Assembly: GCA_017441845.1 (NCBI GenBank) | Contig: JAFRVB010000005.1 | Span: forward strand, 86,150 to 147,525 | Length of the DNA stretch: 61,376 nt | Reading direction: 5' to 3' | From: Bacilli bacterium | GTDB lineage: Bacteria > Bacillota_I > Bacilli_A > RF39 > UBA660 | Shown: positions 9,239 to 15,944 of the stretch, piece after piece | Numbering within the stretch: the stretch's first letter is position 1 | Layout: the number at the start of each line of letters is the position of its first letter | Position numbers and translations under genes: made by a program | Notes under the pieces: model-generated | The model's input: the letters and a program-made list of their open reading frames with translations, nothing else | Database searches by the model: none | Told to the model about the DNA's origin: nothing

Positions 9239-10015
9239 ATGGGATTTTCTGCTACAAGAATAGATGTAAAAACACCTGAAGCTAATAATTATGTAAATGA
9301 TTATAATGCTACTTTTGATGCTGATAATACTGTTAAGTCTGTTGAGGTTGAAAGTGTTGATTTTAGTAAAGAAGTTGAAAAAGTAGAAGATGTAGAATTA
9401 GCACAACAACCTAAAGTAGAAGAAGTGAAAGTAGAAGAAGTATCTTCATCATTTGAGAAACCTGATATTAAAGAAATAATAGATAATGCTTCTAAAGAAG
9501 TAGATACTAAATATGATGAAAAACCAAGTTCTAATTTAAAAGAACATAAATTTGTTAATTATTATCAAGGTGATTATAATAATCCTTATAGTGAAGGTAC
9601 TATCGCAACATCTGGTTGTGGACCTACGTCTGCAGCTATGGCTCTTACTTATATTACCGGTAAAGAAGTTAGTCCTGTTGAGACTGCTGAATTTGGTAAT
9701 GGTGATTATACTTGTTCAGAGGGAACATATTGGACTTATTTTGGAGATGTATCTGCTAAATATGGAGTTAAATGTAATGAAGAACATGTTTCAGCTGATA
9801 ATATTAAAAAAGGTCTAAGTGATGGAAAACCTGTTATTATTTCGATGGGACCTGGACACTTTACTTCTGCAGGACATTTTATTGTTCTTAGATCAATAGA
9901 TGGTGATGGTAATGTCAAGGTTGCTGATCCTGCTAGCAAAGAAAGATCAAGTGAAACTTGGAGTTTAGATACGATTGTATCTGAAGGAAAAGAGATTTGG
10001 ACATTTAATCTATAA
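9239..10015 (+). CDS. MGFS-head protein with C39-like cysteine peptidase domain
   Basis: A 258-residue protein without signal peptide or membrane segment. Residues 1-50 are the MGFS head also seen in the genes at 10072 and 12241 (MGFSxxxIdV, then P, then DyN, then VExES). An acidic Val/Glu-rich linker runs to about 100. Residues 105-257 are a C39-type papain-like domain: Cys127 in SGCGPTSAAM, His213 in AGHFIVLR, Asp230 in VADP. The same domain, roughly 80% identical by eye, sits behind a WXG-type head at 12933. The context suggests export by a type VII-like route and a wall or peptide substrate. Strong Shine-Dalgarno; own promoter and terminator. Confidence 0.8.
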   Translation: MGFSATRIDVKTPEANNYVNDYNATFDADNTVKSVEVESVDFSKEVEKVEDVELAQQPKVEEVKVEEVSSSFEKPDIKEIIDNASKEVDTKYDEKPSSNLKEHKFVNYYQGDYNNPYSEGTIATSGCGPTSAAMALTYITGKEVSPVETAEFGNGDYTCSEGTYWTYFGDVSAKYGVKCNEEHVSADNIKKGLSDGKPVIISMGPGHFTSAGHFIVLRSIDGDGNVKVADPASKERSSETWSLDTIVSEGKEIWTFNL

Positions 10016-10043
10016 AACTATTAGTCTAACTAATAGTTTTTTT
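10014..10043 (+). terminator. Intrinsic terminator
   Basis: AAAACTATTAG (10014-10024) with CTAATAGTTTT (10030-10040), loop TCTAA, then T run. Confidence 0.9.
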
Positions 10044-10044
10044 A

Positions 10045-10053
10045 TGATATAAT
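10045..10053 (+). promoter_or_regulatory. Extended -10 promoter
   Basis: TGATATAAT, 18 bases before ATG 10072. Confidence 0.65.
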
Positions 10054-10071
10054 TGAATTGGAGATGATGAT

Positions 10072-11577
10072 ATGGGATTCAGCAGTAAAAAGATAGAAGT
10101 AAATATACCTAGCTTAGATGAATTAGTAAGTGATGTTGCTAATGGGTTAGAAGAAAAGATAGAAGATGTTAAAAATGAAGTAGAATCCATTGATTTATCT
10201 GATGTATCTACTAAAGCAGGTATTTTTGGAGATAAATATTATGGTCATAAAGATTATGAAACATTAGAAGATTTAGATTTAAAAAGAAAAAAGAATTTAG
10301 ATGATATAGATAAATTTGTTAATTTAGAAAAACTAGACTTACAAAATTGTGATTTGAAAGATTCATCTGATTTAAAATCTATTCCTGATACGATAGAGAG
10401 TATTAAATTTACTAATTGTGAAATAGATGATTATTCTTATTTAAATAATAAAAGAAATCTTAATAAAATAGTTATTTATTGTGCTGATACTGGTATTAAT
10501 TTAAGTCAATTTCAAAATAGAAATCTTGATACATTAGTAATAGATGGTTGTAGGGGTAGTATTACTGGAGATTTAAGTAATATGCCAGGTTTAGAAACTA
10601 TTAATATTAGTAATACTAATATAACTGATTTAGATTTTATGAGAAATAATCATAATGTTAAAGAAGTATATTTGGATAGTAATTTATTAACAGATATTTC
10701 TTCTTTATATGATTCTGATATTGAGAAGTTATCTATTGAAAATAATTCTATTCAAGAATTAGATATTAGCAGATTTCCTAAATTAAAAGAATTGAATGTT
10801 TCAGATAATTATGCATTATATACAAGTGAATTATTAGCGGCTTGTAAAGCTAGAGGAATTGAAGTTGATATTGATCATGATGATGTTAAAATGATGAATG
10901 AAGTTAGAGATATAATTGATGATTTACATTTAGAAGGAAAGAGTCAATTAGAAAAAGAAGCTATTATTTATGATTATCTTATGAATCATATGGAATATAA
11001 TAGAAAATTAGAAGTAGAAAGTAATATGGAACCACTTAAATGTGCTTTAGATGGGGAAGGTGTATGTATTAGTTATGCTGTTTTCTTTAAAGCACTATGT
11101 AATGCTGCTGGAATAAACTCTTATTTAGATTTGGGTTATGCAAAACAAGGTGTTGTAATACCTGGTGGTCTTCATGCTTGGAATTTAATAGAAATAGAAG
11201 GACAATACTATCTATGTGATCCAACTTGGAGTGATAAAATGAGAGATAGTACACTTACTTTTTATGGCGTAAAAAAACTATGGAGTCATTTCTTTTCAGA
11301 TAGTGATTTACCACCAGAAGATCAATTCTATAATGTATATGGGAAAGATGCTAAAAAGTTTATGAAACAACATAGAGAAACAGCTAATGATGTTAAAAAA
11401 GATGAAATATATAAAGATGAGGAAGCTCTAAATATTGTTAGTGTTGATACATCTGATACAATTGGACAAAAACTTGCTGTTGATACAGCAGTTGTAGCTA
11501 CTGAACCATTTTCTTCTGGTATTAAGAAGATATCAAATGAATTAGTAGAAAAATTACAAATTAGTTATAGAGATTAA
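10072..11577 (+). CDS. MGFS-head protein with leucine-rich repeats and transglutaminase-like domain
   Basis: A 501-residue protein with three parts. Residues 1-45 are the MGFS head (MGFSSKKIEVNIP). Residues about 80-250 are irregular leucine-rich repeats (LEKLDLQNC, LETINISNTNITDL, VKEVYLDSNLLTDI, LKELNVSDN). Residues about 280-400 are a transglutaminase-like papain-fold domain with Cys332 in GEGVCISYA, His368 in LHAWN and Asp383 in CDPTW, a complete C-H-D triad. The tail is helical. No signal peptide. LRR plus transglutaminase-like fusions are often surface proteins, so export through the same route as its neighbours is likely, but is inference. Own promoter; convergent with the next gene. 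Confidence 0.8.
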   Translation: MGFSSKKIEVNIPSLDELVSDVANGLEEKIEDVKNEVESIDLSDVSTKAGIFGDKYYGHKDYETLEDLDLKRKKNLDDIDKFVNLEKLDLQNCDLKDSSDLKSIPDTIESIKFTNCEIDDYSYLNNKRNLNKIVIYCADTGINLSQFQNRNLDTLVIDGCRGSITGDLSNMPGLETINISNTNITDLDFMRNNHNVKEVYLDSNLLTDISSLYDSDIEKLSIENNSIQELDISRFPKLKELNVSDNYALYTSELLAACKARGIEVDIDHDDVKMMNEVRDIIDDLHLEGKSQLEKEAIIYDYLMNHMEYNRKLEVESNMEPLKCALDGEGVCISYAVFFKALCNAAGINSYLDLGYAKQGVVIPGGLHAWNLIEIEGQYYLCDPTWSDKMRDSTLTFYGVKKLWSHFFSDSDLPPEDQFYNVYGKDAKKFMKQHRETANDVKKDEIYKDEEALNIVSVDTSDTIGQKLAVDTAVVATEPFSSGIKKISNELVEKLQISYRD

Positions 11578-11605
11578 AAAACTATTGGATTTCCAATAGT
11601 TTTAA
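11577..11605. terminator. Bidirectional terminator
   Basis: AACTATTGG (11580-11588) with CCAATAGTT (11593-11601) flanked by A and T runs, serving both convergent genes. Confidence 0.85.
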
Positions 11606-12117
11606 TTTTCTTTAATATTTGTAATTATTTCAGATAACATGTTGAATAATGATTCATTTAAGTTGTTATCTTGTTCTACACTCATTTTATTATCTAATGT
11701 GATAGGTGGTGTTGAAACAGTTATTTGATAAAACATATTATTTTTATCTACTATGTAAGCATTCATTTGTTTAATGATTACATTATTAATAATATTATTT
11801 TGAACATACACTTTTATATCATTAATATTTTTATACCATAGGAGATTCTTTTCTGGAGAAAGAAAATCATTCTTTTTCATTTCTTCTATAGTTTCTTTAA
11901 TAACATTATTTAAGTGAGAATCATAATCTCCTTGTAATTCTTTATCTTTTATGAATTGTTCCATAAAGTTATCTGGGTTTTTTGCGATAAATATAATGTT
12001 TGGATGATCAGTTTCTATTATTTCAAATTCATTTAATAATGGGATTGATAAACTAGTAGAGTTAATATTTTCATTTAACTCTTTAACCATTTCTAATATT
12101 TTTTCATTATCATTCAT
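11602..12117 (-). CDS. Hypothetical 171-residue protein inside the secretion cluster
   Basis: Not recognised. A soluble acidic protein without signal peptide, with an N-terminal helix (NEKILEMVKELNENINS), a central helical part and a C-terminal beta stretch (NAYIVDKNNMFYQITVSTPP) then a last helix. The domain pattern is like small alpha/beta chaperone or immunity-type proteins, without a match I can name. It is the only minus-strand gene of the 9-16 kb cluster, has its own good promoter, and could be an immunity protein, chaperone or regulator for the exported enzymes. AGGTGAT precedes its ATG. Confidence 0.65.
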   Translation of the reverse strand: MNDNEKILEMVKELNENINSTSLSIPLLNEFEIIETDHPNIIFIAKNPDNFMEQFIKDKELQGDYDSHLNNVIKETIEEMKKNDFLSPEKNLLWYKNINDIKVYVQNNIINNVIIKQMNAYIVDKNNMFYQITVSTPPITLDNKMSVEQDNNLNESLFNMLSEIITNIKEN

Positions 12118-12133
12118 ATTATCACCTAGTGTA

Positions 12134-12162
12134 ATTATATACTAAAATAGTTGTAAAATCAA
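12134..12162 (-). promoter_or_regulatory. Promoter with -35 and -10 for minus-strand gene
   Basis: On the minus strand TTGATT (12162-12157), 17-base spacer, TATAAT (12139-12134), 17 bases from the ATG. Confidence 0.7.
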
Positions 12163-12193
12163 AAGTATTTTTATTTATTTTAATATTTCTTTA

Positions 12194-12202
12194 TGTTATA
12201 AT
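12194..12202 (+). promoter_or_regulatory. Extended -10 promoter
   Basis: TGTTATAAT ahead of AGGGAGGT (12228-12235) and ATG 12241. Confidence 0.65.
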
Positions 12203-12240
12203 TAATGTGGAAATATACTACTAAAATAGGGAGGTTTATT

Positions 12241-12906
12241 ATGGGATTTAGTTCAAAACCAATTGATGTAGAACAACCAAAATTGAATAATTTATTGAAT
12301 GATTATAATTCTAATTTGGCTGGTTCTGGCAAGGTTAATAGAGTTGAAACTGAAAGTATGGATATGGATGCGAGAGTTAATGAAACTACTCCTGAGCTTG
12401 AACCTTTGAGTTCGGTTGAAATACCACCTGAAATACAACAAACAGGATATACTGTTTCAGGATATGGTGAAGATGGTGCGGTTTTACCTAGTATGAATAC
12501 TGTTGCGTTTACAGAAGGATCTAATCAAAAAGAATTACATGAGATGTGGGTAAATGAAGGAGCATCATATAAAAATGATATTGCGACTATGAATGTTAAT
12601 GGTGAAGATAGATATCTAATTGTAACTTCAGATACTTTTGGTAGTGTTGGAGATATGGTTACACTTGAACTTGGTAATGGTGAAAAAATAGATTGTGTTA
12701 TTGCGGATACTAAAGGTTCTGGTGGAGTTAATTTTTCTAAATATGGAGATGCTTATGGAGACCAAGTTAACGTTGTACAATTTGAAGTAAATATTGGTAA
12801 GTTTAATGCTTCTGGTAATCCAACTACTGAAAGTTGGAACTTAGAATGGGATAGTAATAGTCCTGTTGTTAATATTAAAAATTATGGATCAATTTTAAAT
12901 AAATAA
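12241..12906 (+). CDS. MGFS-head protein with VGD/CVI beta domain
   Basis: A 221-residue protein. Residues 1-50 are the MGFS head (MGFSSKPIDVEQP, NDYN, VETES). The second half contains SVGDMVTLELGNGEKIDCVIADT and ends VVNIKNYGSIL. This half resembles the C-terminus of the protein at 13861 (KVGDKLTITSTSGETINCVIGST, then NVANIQN), so the two share a domain. The pattern is like double-psi beta-barrel (RlpA/3D-type) wall domains, which is an inference without a search. No signal peptide. ATG 12241 is chosen because AGGGAGGT lies just before it and alignment of the head starts there. It heads the probable operon 12241-15241. Confidence 0.75.
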   Translation: MGFSSKPIDVEQPKLNNLLNDYNSNLAGSGKVNRVETESMDMDARVNETTPELEPLSSVEIPPEIQQTGYTVSGYGEDGAVLPSMNTVAFTEGSNQKELHEMWVNEGASYKNDIATMNVNGEDRYLIVTSDTFGSVGDMVTLELGNGEKIDCVIADTKGSGGVNFSKYGDAYGDQVNVVQFEVNIGKFNASGNPTTESWNLEWDSNSPVVNIKNYGSILNK

Positions 12907-12932: not shown

Positions 12933-13841
12933 ATGGTAAGTAGTAGTAAAGTAAATTCTGATTGTAGTACCATAACTAGTACATTAAGTAAATATACGAC
13001 TGCTGTATCTGGTCTTTCCGGTGATTGGAAAGGTGCTTCATATGACAATTTATCATCTAAAGCTGCAGAATTTATTGCTGATGCTCAAGGTAAGATTAGC
13101 AAGAGTATGGAAGCATTTGCTACTGCATGTGATGAATATGAAAAGTATCTTGAAAAAAAACAAGAATTAAAAGATCTTCAATCAAAATTGAGTGATGCTA
13201 AAAATAAAGATTCTGAAGAGAATGATATGTCCTCTACAATAAGACATTATCAAAGTAAGATTAGTGATAAAAAAGAAGAAATTGAAACTTTAAAGAAACA
13301 AATAAAATCACATTTGTCTACCGCTAGTGGATCTAAAGTTAAAGGTGCTAATCCACAAATGACTGTAGCTGGACATGCTTTTGTTAATTATTATCAGTTT
13401 GATTATAATAATCCATACAGTCAAGGTACAATCGCGACATCTGGTTGTGGACCTACGTCTGCGGCTATGGCTCTTACTTATATTACTGGTAAAGAAATTA
13501 CACCTGTTGAGACAGCTGAATTTGGTAATGGTACTTATACATGTTCTCAAGGAACATATTGGTCATACTTTGGAGCTGTATCTGAAAAGTATGGAGTTAA
13601 ATGTAATCAAGAATCAGTATCTTCTGATAATATAAAAAATGGATTTAAAAATGGTAAACCTGTTATTATATCTATGGGTCCAGGACACTTTACTTCTGCA
13701 GGACACTTCATAGTTCTTAGAGGTATGGATAGTAATGGTAAAGTTATTGTTGCAGATCCTAATAGTAAAGAAAAGTCAAACCAAACTTGGGATATGGATA
13801 CAATCGTAGCGGAAGGAAAACAAATTTGGACTTTCCAATAA
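12933..13841 (+). CDS. WXG-type head fused to C39-like cysteine peptidase
   Basis: A 302-residue protein. Residues 1-75 look like a WXG100 helical hairpin with the turn motif DWKGASYDN (Trp32-Lys-Gly34). Residues about 70-125 are a charged coiled coil. Residues 150-302 are the same C39-type domain as in the gene at 9239, with Cys172, His258 and Asp275. WXG100-fold heads target proteins to ESX/type VII systems, so this is a likely exported peptidase. ATG 12933 has AGGAGG only 4 bases upstream, unusually close, but no better in-frame start exists. It is 26 bases downstream of the previous gene. Confidence 0.8.
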   Translation: MVSSSKVNSDCSTITSTLSKYTTAVSGLSGDWKGASYDNLSSKAAEFIADAQGKISKSMEAFATACDEYEKYLEKKQELKDLQSKLSDAKNKDSEENDMSSTIRHYQSKISDKKEEIETLKKQIKSHLSTASGSKVKGANPQMTVAGHAFVNYYQFDYNNPYSQGTIATSGCGPTSAAMALTYITGKEITPVETAEFGNGTYTCSQGTYWSYFGAVSEKYGVKCNQESVSSDNIKNGFKNGKPVIISMGPGHFTSAGHFIVLRGMDSNGKVIVADPNSKEKSNQTWDMDTIVAEGKQIWTFQ

Positions 13842-14953: not shown

Positions 14954-15241
14954 ATGGCTGAATTAGTATGTGATTTTGAAGCGGTGAAAAAAGCAGGAAA
15001 TGATTTAATAAAAGCTTCTGGTGATTATGACAAAGCTATTAGTACTTTTTCATCTGGAATTGATAGTGATTTAGCTGGATGGGAAAGTGCATCAAAATCT
15101 GTCTTTAATAGTCAAAAAGAAGCACAAGTTGTAGCATCTAAAGCAGCTTCTGCTCAAACAAAGGCTGTAGGTGAATACATTAAAGGTTGCGCTGAAGCTA
15201 TTGAAGAATTAGACGAAGAATTAGCGTCTGCAGGCATTTAA
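14954..15241 (+). CDS. WXG100-like protein (WES variant)
   Basis: A 95-residue all-helical protein with the turn at Trp43-Glu-Ser45 (AGWESASKS) flanked by Ala/Ser-rich helices, the size and plan of WXG100 proteins, with Ser replacing the Gly of WxG. Starts 4 bases after the preceding stop; GGGAG at 14941-14945 lies inside the upstream gene, so translation is coupled. Probably a secreted partner or chaperone-like dimer subunit for the larger proteins upstream. Confidence 0.75.
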   Translation: MAELVCDFEAVKKAGNDLIKASGDYDKAISTFSSGIDSDLAGWESASKSVFNSQKEAQVVASKAASAQTKAVGEYIKGCAEAIEELDEELASAGI

Positions 15242-15268
15242 GTGTAAAATTTTTGTCATATTTTACAC
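15242..15268 (+). other. Perfect 9-base inverted repeat without U-tract
   Basis: GTGTAAAAT (15242-15250) and ATTTTACAC (15260-15268) around a 9-base loop, just after the WES gene stop and upstream of the next promoter. No T run follows the 3' arm, so it is not a standard terminator; it could be an RNA end-stabilising hairpin, a processing site or an operator. Confidence 0.5.
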
Positions 15269-15294
15269 AGTTTGATGAATGTTTATGAGATAAA

Positions 15295-15303
15295 TGATAT
15301 AAT
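15295..15303 (+). promoter_or_regulatory. Extended -10 promoter of WXG100 pair
   Basis: TGATATAAT followed by TAGGAGGT at 15313-15320 and ATG 15327. Confidence 0.65.
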
Positions 15304-15326
15304 TTTTTTAGATAGGAGGTAAAGTT

Positions 15327-15632
15327 ATGTCAGGTGGTTTAAAAGTAAATACCGGATCAATGAATACTAATGGTAGAGATACTGTTTCTTCTGCCGAAAA
15401 TCTTGCTAGTGAACTATCTAGCTTAAAAAGCAACATGGAAAATTTAATGACTATTTGGAGAGGAAAATCTGCTAATGATTTTAATGAGGCTTATGAACAA
15501 CAAAATCAAAATTTCCAAGCATTTCAACAATTATTAAATGAATTAGGAGAAAAGATTAGTGCTGCTGCTAAAAATCTTAATCAAACAGAGGAAGATAACG
15601 CTAGAGCAGGATCTAACTTATTCGGTAATTAG
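15327..15632 (+). CDS. WXG100-family protein (EsxA/YukE-like)
   Basis: A 101-residue canonical WXG100 protein: two helices joined at Trp44-Arg-Gly46 (TIWRGKSANDF), with no signal peptide. Such proteins are small dimeric substrates of ESX/type VII secretion and are needed for export of larger cargo. Strong Shine-Dalgarno and own promoter. The next gene begins 12 bases downstream, giving a typical pair. No EssC-type ATPase is present in the window, so the machinery must lie elsewhere if the system is complete. Confidence 0.88.
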   Translation: MSGGLKVNTGSMNTNGRDTVSSAENLASELSSLKSNMENLMTIWRGKSANDFNEAYEQQNQNFQAFQQLLNELGEKISAAAKNLNQTEEDNARAGSNLFGN

Positions 15633-15644
15633 GAGGGTATTTAA

Positions 15645-15944
15645 ATGAATGAATTTGAAGAGAAAGATTATGGCGAAGCGAGAAGTCTAGCAGATGGTAT
15701 TCTAACTAACGCTAATAATATTAATGATATATTTGATACTATAGATCGTGTTATGAATGATCTATATGGTTCAAATTGGCAAAGTACAGGTGCAGATAGA
15801 GCTAGAGAAAGATATGATCAAATTCGTAAAAACTATCAAGTTTTCTACCAAAAAGTAGTTGATATGAAAACTCATATCTATAATGTTACTGCTGCTAATG
15901 AAGAAGCAGATACTGCAGCTAGTGCAATGATTTCTAAAATATAA
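15645..15944 (+). CDS. WXG100-like protein (WQS variant)
   Basis: A 99-residue helical protein with the turn at Trp45-Gln-Ser47 (SNWQSTGADRARERYDQI). It is the likely partner of the WXG100 protein encoded just upstream, with AGGAGGG overlapping the upstream stop. Acidic at the N-terminus and Ala-rich at the C-terminus. Together with the genes at 14954 and 15327 it gives three small WXG-type proteins in a row. Confidence 0.8.
   Translation: MNEFEEKDYGEARSLADGILTNANNINDIFDTIDRVMNDLYGSNWQSTGADRARERYDQIRKNYQVFYQKVVDMKTHIYNVTAANEEADTAASAMISKI

What the first reader, a model, noticed from the sequence alone, without database searches (positions are those of the whole stretch)
9239..12390. Shared N-terminal MGFS head in three otherwise unrelated proteins
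The first about 45 residues at 9239, 10072 and 12241 align by eye: MGFSxxxI(D/E)V, then Pro, then a helix ending near (D)YN, then VExES(V/I/M)D. The sequence after it differs completely (C39, LRR-transglutaminase, beta domain). A conserved start followed by variable enzymes is the usual mark of a targeting or chaperone-binding module. I do not know a described family with this pattern.
Basis: seen in the sequence. Interest (0 to 1): 0.75.

Follow-up and report, generated by a model that had tools for sequence, protein, structure and literature searches.

The report
Short address tag for secreted enzymes
Unrelated enzymes of an uncultured gut-type bacterium begin with the same roughly 55-residue segment, which looks like a short shipping label for the type VII secretion machine, used in place of the long helical domain that known cargoes of that machine carry.

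Summary
The shared head is real. Each window head is found by an HMM of the other two within the top 4 of 706 N-termini. An HMM of all three finds more heads in the same genome and a congener, 11 in all, every one near type VII secretion (T7SS) genes. Cargoes include C39 peptidase, LRR-transglutaminase, a beta domain, HD and HExxH-bearing proteins. Three cargo types occur in one genome both with this head and with a WXG-type or other longer head; the C39 pair is 77% identical.

Short-headed effectors stand at loci whose EssC ATPase forms one clade and which carry a separate ~220-residue helical protein. Most likely the head is a docking tag read by a trans-acting helical partner, a "split LXG". 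Targeting and docking are inferred, not shown; binding of a DUF4176 (Ltc) chaperone or of WXG100 proteins are the main rivals. No description found in the papers searched. New variant of a known kind.

The parts
9239..9403 (+). MGFS head (about residues 1-55) of the C39-peptidase protein
   Evidence: alignment A1; leave-one-out HMM 46.6 bits
9350..9364 (+). box ESVDF (residues 38-42)
9239..10015 (+). MGFS head + acidic linker + C39_2 peptidase domain (258 aa)
   Evidence: PF13529 E 2.5e-19, residues 108-232
10072..10206 (+). MGFS head (about residues 1-45) of the LRR-transglutaminase protein
10183..10197 (+). box ESIDL (residues 38-42)
10072..11577 (+). MGFS head + leucine-rich repeats + transglutaminase core (501 aa)
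   Evidence: PF12799 E 1.4e-12, PF01841 E 1.3e-10
12241..12399 (+). MGFS head (residues 1-53) of the beta-domain protein
   Evidence: cargo homology with the differently headed L152 starts at residue 54
12352..12366 (+). box ESMDM (residues 38-42)
12241..12906 (+). MGFS head + uncharacterised beta domain (221 aa); cargo found in 19 of 291 family genomes
   Evidence: no Pfam hit
12933..13841 (+). same C39 cargo behind a WXG-type helical head (302 aa): head-swap partner of 9239-10015
   Evidence: 77% identity over 161 aa; its head is homologous to L033:1155, which passes PF06013
13861..14949 (+). protein with a different helical-looking N-terminus, low-complexity linker and a distant copy of the 12241 beta domain
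14954..15241 (+). WXG100-like small protein
   Evidence: PF06013 E 0.032; similar to P0007
15327..15632 (+). WXG100 protein
   Evidence: PF06013 E 5.9e-15
15645..15944 (+). WXG100 protein
   Evidence: PF06013 E 7.9e-8

Best explanation
The MGFS head is an N-terminal targeting/docking module for type VII secretion that replaces the ~100-200 residue helical WXG/LXG domain of ordinary substrates. It is ~53-58 residues long, with an N-part (K-x-I/Y-x-V-x-x-P-x-L/M) and, at residue ~38, a short box E-x-hydrophobic-D/N-hydrophobic. It is probably flexible and bound by a partner that supplies the helical targeting surface in trans. The likeliest partner is the ~220-residue helical protein encoded between EssC and the effector genes in one EssC clade (two paralogues in the window's genome at contig C7). 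Shown: the head family, its T7SS neighbourhood, exchange of heads on the same cargo, enrichment of the box, coincidence of short heads with the ~220-aa protein and with one EssC clade. Inferred: secretion, docking, and which partner.
For: 11 heads in two genomes, all in T7SS neighbourhoods. Three head swaps: C39, P0001 vs P0004, 77% over 161 aa; beta domain, P0003 and its orthologue vs L152, 46% and 54%, homology starting at residues 54/53, the two forms in one genome, G003; papain-like domain, L033:6462 vs L033:1155, 40% over 180 aa starting at residue 58. The hydrophobic middle domain of the C7 effectors recurs in 23 of 291 family genomes, mostly behind long helical-looking heads. The ~220-aa protein: 17 of 291 genomes, an EssC gene or fragment in every one of the 17 fetched loci. 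EssC of its loci: 22 rows on one side of a 100/99 branch, 18 others on the other; the 23rd row, L051, is a second piece of the window genome's own C7 EssC. Box E-x-h-D/N-h in the first 80 aa: 8 of 11 MGFS heads against 1.0 expected from shuffles; 20 of 29 short heads outside the genus against 2.5 (that list was picked by eye). On an adjacency-defined set the box was the 5th of 130,000 patterns enumerated blind: 11 of 18 against 15 of 132 controls. Out-of-sample: G188, examined because it had short heads but no ~220-aa hit, turned out to carry a divergent copy beside EssC (E 1.3e-7), and its three short heads on three cargoes all hold ENY(D/N)L.
Against: No experiment. The box is short and degenerate: missing in 3 of 11 MGFS heads and 9 of 29 others; 55 of 362 other called proteins of 270 aa or more have it by chance or relation. 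A PSSM trained on the genus gave only moderate transfer (10 of 18 vs 21 of 132, p = 5e-4), and a blind EM motif search found nothing useful. In the blind enumeration, Ser/Thr/Asn-rich patterns scored better than the box. The three window head genes are on another contig than EssC. Similarity of the ~220-aa protein to WXG100 is not significant (hhalign probability 2%), and fold searches were uninformative. Disorder was not shown: crude scales do not separate these heads from WXG-type heads.
Confidence: 0.68

Rival explanations
1. The head is the binding site of a DUF4176-type (Ltc) chaperone. Such chaperones bind a disordered region of LXG toxins and keep them export-competent; here the head would be that region and targeting would lie elsewhere.
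For: DUF4176 genes stand directly before several short-headed effectors (L031:9118, L085-L089, L090, L094, L162). PMC13355648 (passages read) states that Ltc chaperones, formerly DUF4176, bind an intrinsically disordered region of a subset of LXG toxins.
Against: DUF4176 is also beside long-headed effectors without the ~220-aa protein (L091, L095-L098, L108, L109, L117) and was not found in 11 adaptor-type loci as fetched (L102, L119, L122-L125, L127-L130, L132), most of which have boxed short heads. The window stretch has none beside the three genes.
Confidence: 0.17
2. The head binds WXG100-type partners encoded nearby (for the window, 14954-15944) rather than the ~220-aa protein, the pair forming a composite signal as LXG-Lap complexes do.
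For: In the window and in the orthologous G003 locus the head genes share a cluster with three WXG100-like genes. Lap partners are the rule for LXG toxins (PMC9600955, passages read).
Against: The C7/C18 heads have no canonical WXG100 beside them but do have the ~220-, 187-, 107- and 83-aa helical set.
Confidence: 0.22
3. The head is only a leftover of gene duplication: a segment inherited when cargo genes were shuffled, without a role of its own.
For: The box is degenerate and the N-part is genus-level.
Against: Head residues of the P0003 orthologues are 44% identical over 54 aa, about as conserved as the whole protein at 48%. The head is attached to at least five unrelated cargo types at a fixed N-terminal place and trades places with other T7SS heads. 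A second genus shows another shared short head with the same box.
Confidence: 0.08

Closest known systems
LXG polymorphic toxins with Lap1/Lap2 targeting factors (type VIIb; PMC9600955, passages read)
   Same: Conserved N-terminal targeting module followed by variable effector domains; small helical proteins encoded beside them; DUF4176 genes nearby.
   Different: The LXG module is a long helical domain on the effector itself. Here 53-58 residues precede the cargo, and a separate ~220-aa helical protein is present at the machine's locus.
TslA, reverse-arranged lipase (PMC10730906, abstract and passages read)
   Same: Shows that the T7SS accepts unusual placement of the targeting domain; helical partners TlaA1/A2.
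   Different: TslA still has a helical targeting domain, at the C-terminus. The abstract says all T7SS substrates described to date share a helical N-terminal domain.
Ltc (DUF4176) chaperones binding disordered stretches of LXG toxins (PMC13355648, passages read; its primary source not held)
   Same: A short flexible stretch of an effector read by a small cytosolic protein.
   Different: Those toxins also carry an LXG domain; here there is no room for one, and the head occurs without a local DUF4176 gene.
T7SSc-T7SSj subtypes (PMC11217815, abstract and sections 6 and 15 read in part)
   Same: EssC + ubiquitin-like protein + WXG-type proteins as minimal core without EssB/EsaA.
   Different: Membership in any lettered subtype was not tested; no reference EssC sequences were at hand.

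Membership tests
LXG effector (PF04740) | long (~200 aa) helical LXG domain at the N-terminus of the effector | tested here: not met
   Cargo homology starts at residues 53-58 in two swap pairs, leaving no room. No LXG hit for P0001-P0003, for the two C7 effectors or for 10 short-headed N-termini. Caution: 7 long-headed controls also had no LXG hit, so the Pfam miss alone proves little.
WXG100 | ~100-aa helical hairpin with W-x-G at the turn | tested here: not met
   Heads have no W-x-G and no PF06013 hit
T7SS substrate with YxxxD/E export arm | conserved YxxxD/E or FxxxD motif | tested here: inconclusive
   Sequences as printed: Y-x-Y-x-D/E occurs in three C7/C18 heads but not in the window heads; read by eye, no count or control run
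Type VIIb system | EssC ATPase | tested here: met
   TIGR03928: 2 matches in G000 at E <= 1e-100, the C8 copy printed and over the cut-off; FtsK_SpoIIIE in the C7 copy
Type VIIb system | EssB/YukC and EsaA | tested here: not met
   No PF10140 or TIGR03929 match over cut-off in 10 of 10 genomes, B. subtilis control positive; the window genome is only 68% complete
T7SS substrate | EssC-dependent export | not testable with these tools
   needs an experiment

The most novel reading that the evidence does not exclude
A type VII subtype of uncultured Bacilli has split the LXG signal in two: a shared ~220-aa helical adaptor made at the machine's locus, and a ~55-aa address tag with an E-x-h-D/N-h box on each effector. 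Because the tag is short, effectors scattered over the genome can join the system, and the same enzyme can be routed to one of two co-resident T7SS machines (C7 or C8 type in the window's genome) by carrying either the tag or a WXG-type head.
Probability: 0.42. Interest if true: 0.85.

Novelty: new variant of a known kind. Interest (0 to 1): 0.72.

Why it matters
Published T7SS substrates are described as needing a helical domain plus helical partners. A short tag that does the same job would separate recognition from cargo shape, give a handle for finding hidden effectors in genomes where LXG/WXG searches fail, and make the recognition question testable with peptides. It would also explain how one cargo can serve two secretion machines in one cell.

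Tried and rejected
Profile A2 in 291 family genomes found heads only in the window's genome and one congener, so the MGFS form cannot be followed further by sequence. Wide searches gave nothing: viral contigs for P0003 and for the ~220-aa protein, plasmids for P0003; phages gave only the C39 domain of P0001 (12 records). The ~220-aa protein was sought in 395 genomes of the class: 3 hits, all of the same family, two of them already known.

Blind EM motif discovery on 49 operon-run proteins failed. AlphaFold2 of P0003 from one sequence was useless (pLDDT 34), so the beta domain's fold and the head's disorder stay open. The model of the ~220-aa protein was good (pLDDT 86.5, pTM 0.81; two helical hairpins, W48 at the turn of the first), but Foldseek gave no match at E <= 0.001 and VIA-align gave a best Z of 8.2 among generic helical bundles. 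Crude disorder and helix scales did not separate head classes. PDB sequence searches with P0003, the head profile and the ~220-aa profile gave no match of note. An idea that the N-part mimics the first strand of the locus's ubiquitin-like protein rests on a loose pattern only (79 of 946 starts match) and has no HMM support.

Considered and dropped: Sec or lipoprotein export (no signal peptide seen in the printed sequences, by eye); microcompartment or contractile-injection leader peptides (recalled; no such genes noticed in the stretches read).

Rows dropped before counts: control sets skip overlapping duplicate loci (L049-L053, L084) and proteins under 270 aa; EssC was removed by its SGKSEF motif (one search kept EssC). 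The regular expression was broadened from the window heads after other heads had been seen; 16 of 92 vs 3 of 174, of which by my reading 13 of the 16 are short-headed effectors.
Full report
OBSERVATION. Three genes at 9239, 10072 and 12241 start with well-placed ribosome-binding sites and share an N-terminal stretch of about 55 residues. Twelve columns are invariant, and the E-S-(V/I/M)-D-(F/L/M) box is at residues 38-42 in all three. Leave-one-out HMMs recover the left-out head at rank 3, 4 and 3 of 706 gene starts.

MORE HEADS. An HMM from the three heads, run on the window's own genome (783,682 bases, 68% complete), hit the three and one new gene on contig C7. Among 60 genomes (the window's own included), only one congener, G003, had clear hits. 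Reading the loci gave 11 heads: five in G000 (three in the window, two on C7) and six in G003. A second profile from all 11 was run on 4 congeneric genomes and on 291 genomes of the family; only these two genomes matched at E <= 0.01. The other relatives with names are uncultured Bacilli or Tenericutes MAGs.

SURROUNDINGS. In the window the heads lie before a WXG-type-headed C39 protein, a second long protein and three WXG100-like genes. G003 has the same cluster with gene losses and gains. On C7 (G000) and C18 (G003) the heads follow EssC, a ubiquitin-like protein, two paralogous ~220-aa helical proteins, helical proteins of about 187, 107 and 83 aa, and DUF4176. On C9 (G003) the head gene is within about 6 kb of two WXG-type-headed proteins. 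So 11 of 11 heads are in T7SS surroundings. G002, a congener with two EssC genes, has this type of locus but no effector there and no head.

CARGO. Behind the head: C39 peptidase and LRR-transglutaminase, a beta domain without a Pfam name, an HD-type domain (PF24391, E 3.1e-5, under its cut-off), proteins with an HEAGH or HELGH motif (seen in the sequence), and a papain-like domain (L033). C39 relatives in phage records and CHAP and cell-wall-hydrolase domains in short-headed proteins elsewhere (L119, L128) suggest cell-wall work for part of the cargo; this is inference.

HEAD SWAPS. The C39 domain of P0001 (MGFS head) is 77% identical over 161 residues to that of P0004. P0004's head is homologous to that of L033:1155, which passes the WXG100 Pfam cut-off. 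The beta cargo of P0003 and its G003 orthologue is 46% and 54% identical to L152 of G003, which has another, longer N-terminus that looks WXG-like but has no Pfam hit; homology starts at residues 54 and 53. L033:6462 and L033:1155 share a domain at 40% over 180 aa from residue 58. The same enzymes are thus carried by either head, and the head module ends at about residue 53-58.

OUTSIDE THE GENUS. The hydrophobic middle domain of the C7 effectors is in 23 of 291 family genomes. Mostly it follows long helical-looking N-termini, but in some it follows short ones. Fetching loci showed that the short ones stand where the ~220-aa protein is encoded. A profile of that protein hit 17 of 291 family genomes; the 13 new loci were fetched and all show short-headed or no effectors near it. 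One exception is L121:248-1774, a long-headed protein in its own WXG cluster about 10 kb away. EssC stands at every one of the 17, at G301 as a fragment on the contig edge. A tree of 41 EssC rows puts the 22 rows from such loci and L051 (a second piece of the C7 EssC) on one side of a 100/99 branch and the other 18 on the other. The short-head loci therefore use one EssC lineage. The window's genome has both lineages (C7 and C8).

THE BOX. Across those loci the heads look unlike MGFS but tend to carry E-x-[VILMFY]-[DN]-[VILMFY]: 8 of 11 MGFS heads (1.0 expected from shuffles) and 20 of 29 others (2.5 expected; this list was chosen by eye), against 55 of 362 other called proteins of 270 aa or more, some of which are themselves these effectors. 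With a set defined only by gene adjacency, the pattern ranked 5th of 130,000 enumerated (11 of 18 vs 15 of 132, nominal p 7.9e-6). The best patterns were Ser/Thr/Asn-rich; 0 of 100 label shuffles equalled the overall best p, but the smallest shuffle p, 3.4e-6, was lower than that of the box. A PSSM trained on the genus transferred moderately (p 5e-4). A blind EM search failed. The box is supported, not proven.

A CHECK ON UNSEEN DATA. The beta cargo was sought in 291 family genomes: 19 have it, behind various heads. One, G188, had short heads but no ~220-aa hit at 1e-6. Its EssC locus was then fetched: a divergent ~209-aa relative sits beside EssC (E 1.3e-7 in the small set searched), and three short heads on three different cargoes on two other contigs all hold ENYDL or ENYNL. 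This is the same situation as in the window, in another genus. At G271, P0003-type cargo with a short head stands next to EssC and the ~220-aa protein, though its frame is broken.

MECHANISM. Most likely the head recruits its enzyme to the C7-type machine by docking on a helical partner, the ~220-aa protein being first choice because it is the gene that follows short heads and their EssC lineage. Its model has two helical hairpins with a conserved tryptophan at the first turn, as in WXG100 proteins, but profile similarity to WXG100 is not significant; the 187-aa protein is closer (E 1.8e-4 in a single comparison, probability 48%). Rivals are DUF4176 binding and WXG100 binding.

LITERATURE. The abstract of PMC10730906 says all T7SS substrates described to date have a helical N-terminal domain. 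PMC9600955 (passages) gives the LXG-Lap model; PMC13355648 (passages) the Ltc chaperones; PMC11322744 and PMC11481500 (passages) DUF4176 in export; PMC10653861 (passages) the EsaD complex; PMC11217815 (abstract, sections 6 in part and 15) subtypes c-j. Searches for short motifs, non-LXG substrates and this lineage's T7SS returned no description of such a head; the library holds open-licence papers only.

VERDICT. A real, previously undescribed (in the papers searched) short head family of T7SS-associated effectors: a new variant of a known kind, of interest because it may separate the type VII signal from the cargo.

Noticed in passing
window 11602-12117 (-): A 171-aa protein on the opposite strand between the head genes, without a Pfam hit, kept in the same divergent slot in G003 (L032:8500-9066).
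   Followed up: no
L050:3130-4725 (= L034:16130 on): An MGFA-headed protein whose linker repeats VP(I/V/L)(E/S)TYN several times, like multiple copies of the box.
   Followed up: no
L128:13537-14500: P0003-type cargo next to EssC and the ~220-aa protein of G271, reading frame shifted near 13840; real decay or assembly error.
   Followed up: partly
G000:C7 and G000:C8 (L031/L051, L099): The window's genome holds two T7SS loci of different EssC lineages; neither has EssB or EsaA over the cut-offs.
   Followed up: partly
L032:2-1609 (-), L051:7449-9158, L099:7436-9277: Large proteins with repeated DTSNVTNM..MF motifs (BspA-like, recalled) lie near T7SS loci.
   Followed up: no
ubiquitin-like genes, e.g. 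L085:4096-4356: They start NKVLIKLIVPELD, loosely like the head's K-x-I-x-V-x-x-P-x-L; no HMM support.
   Followed up: partly
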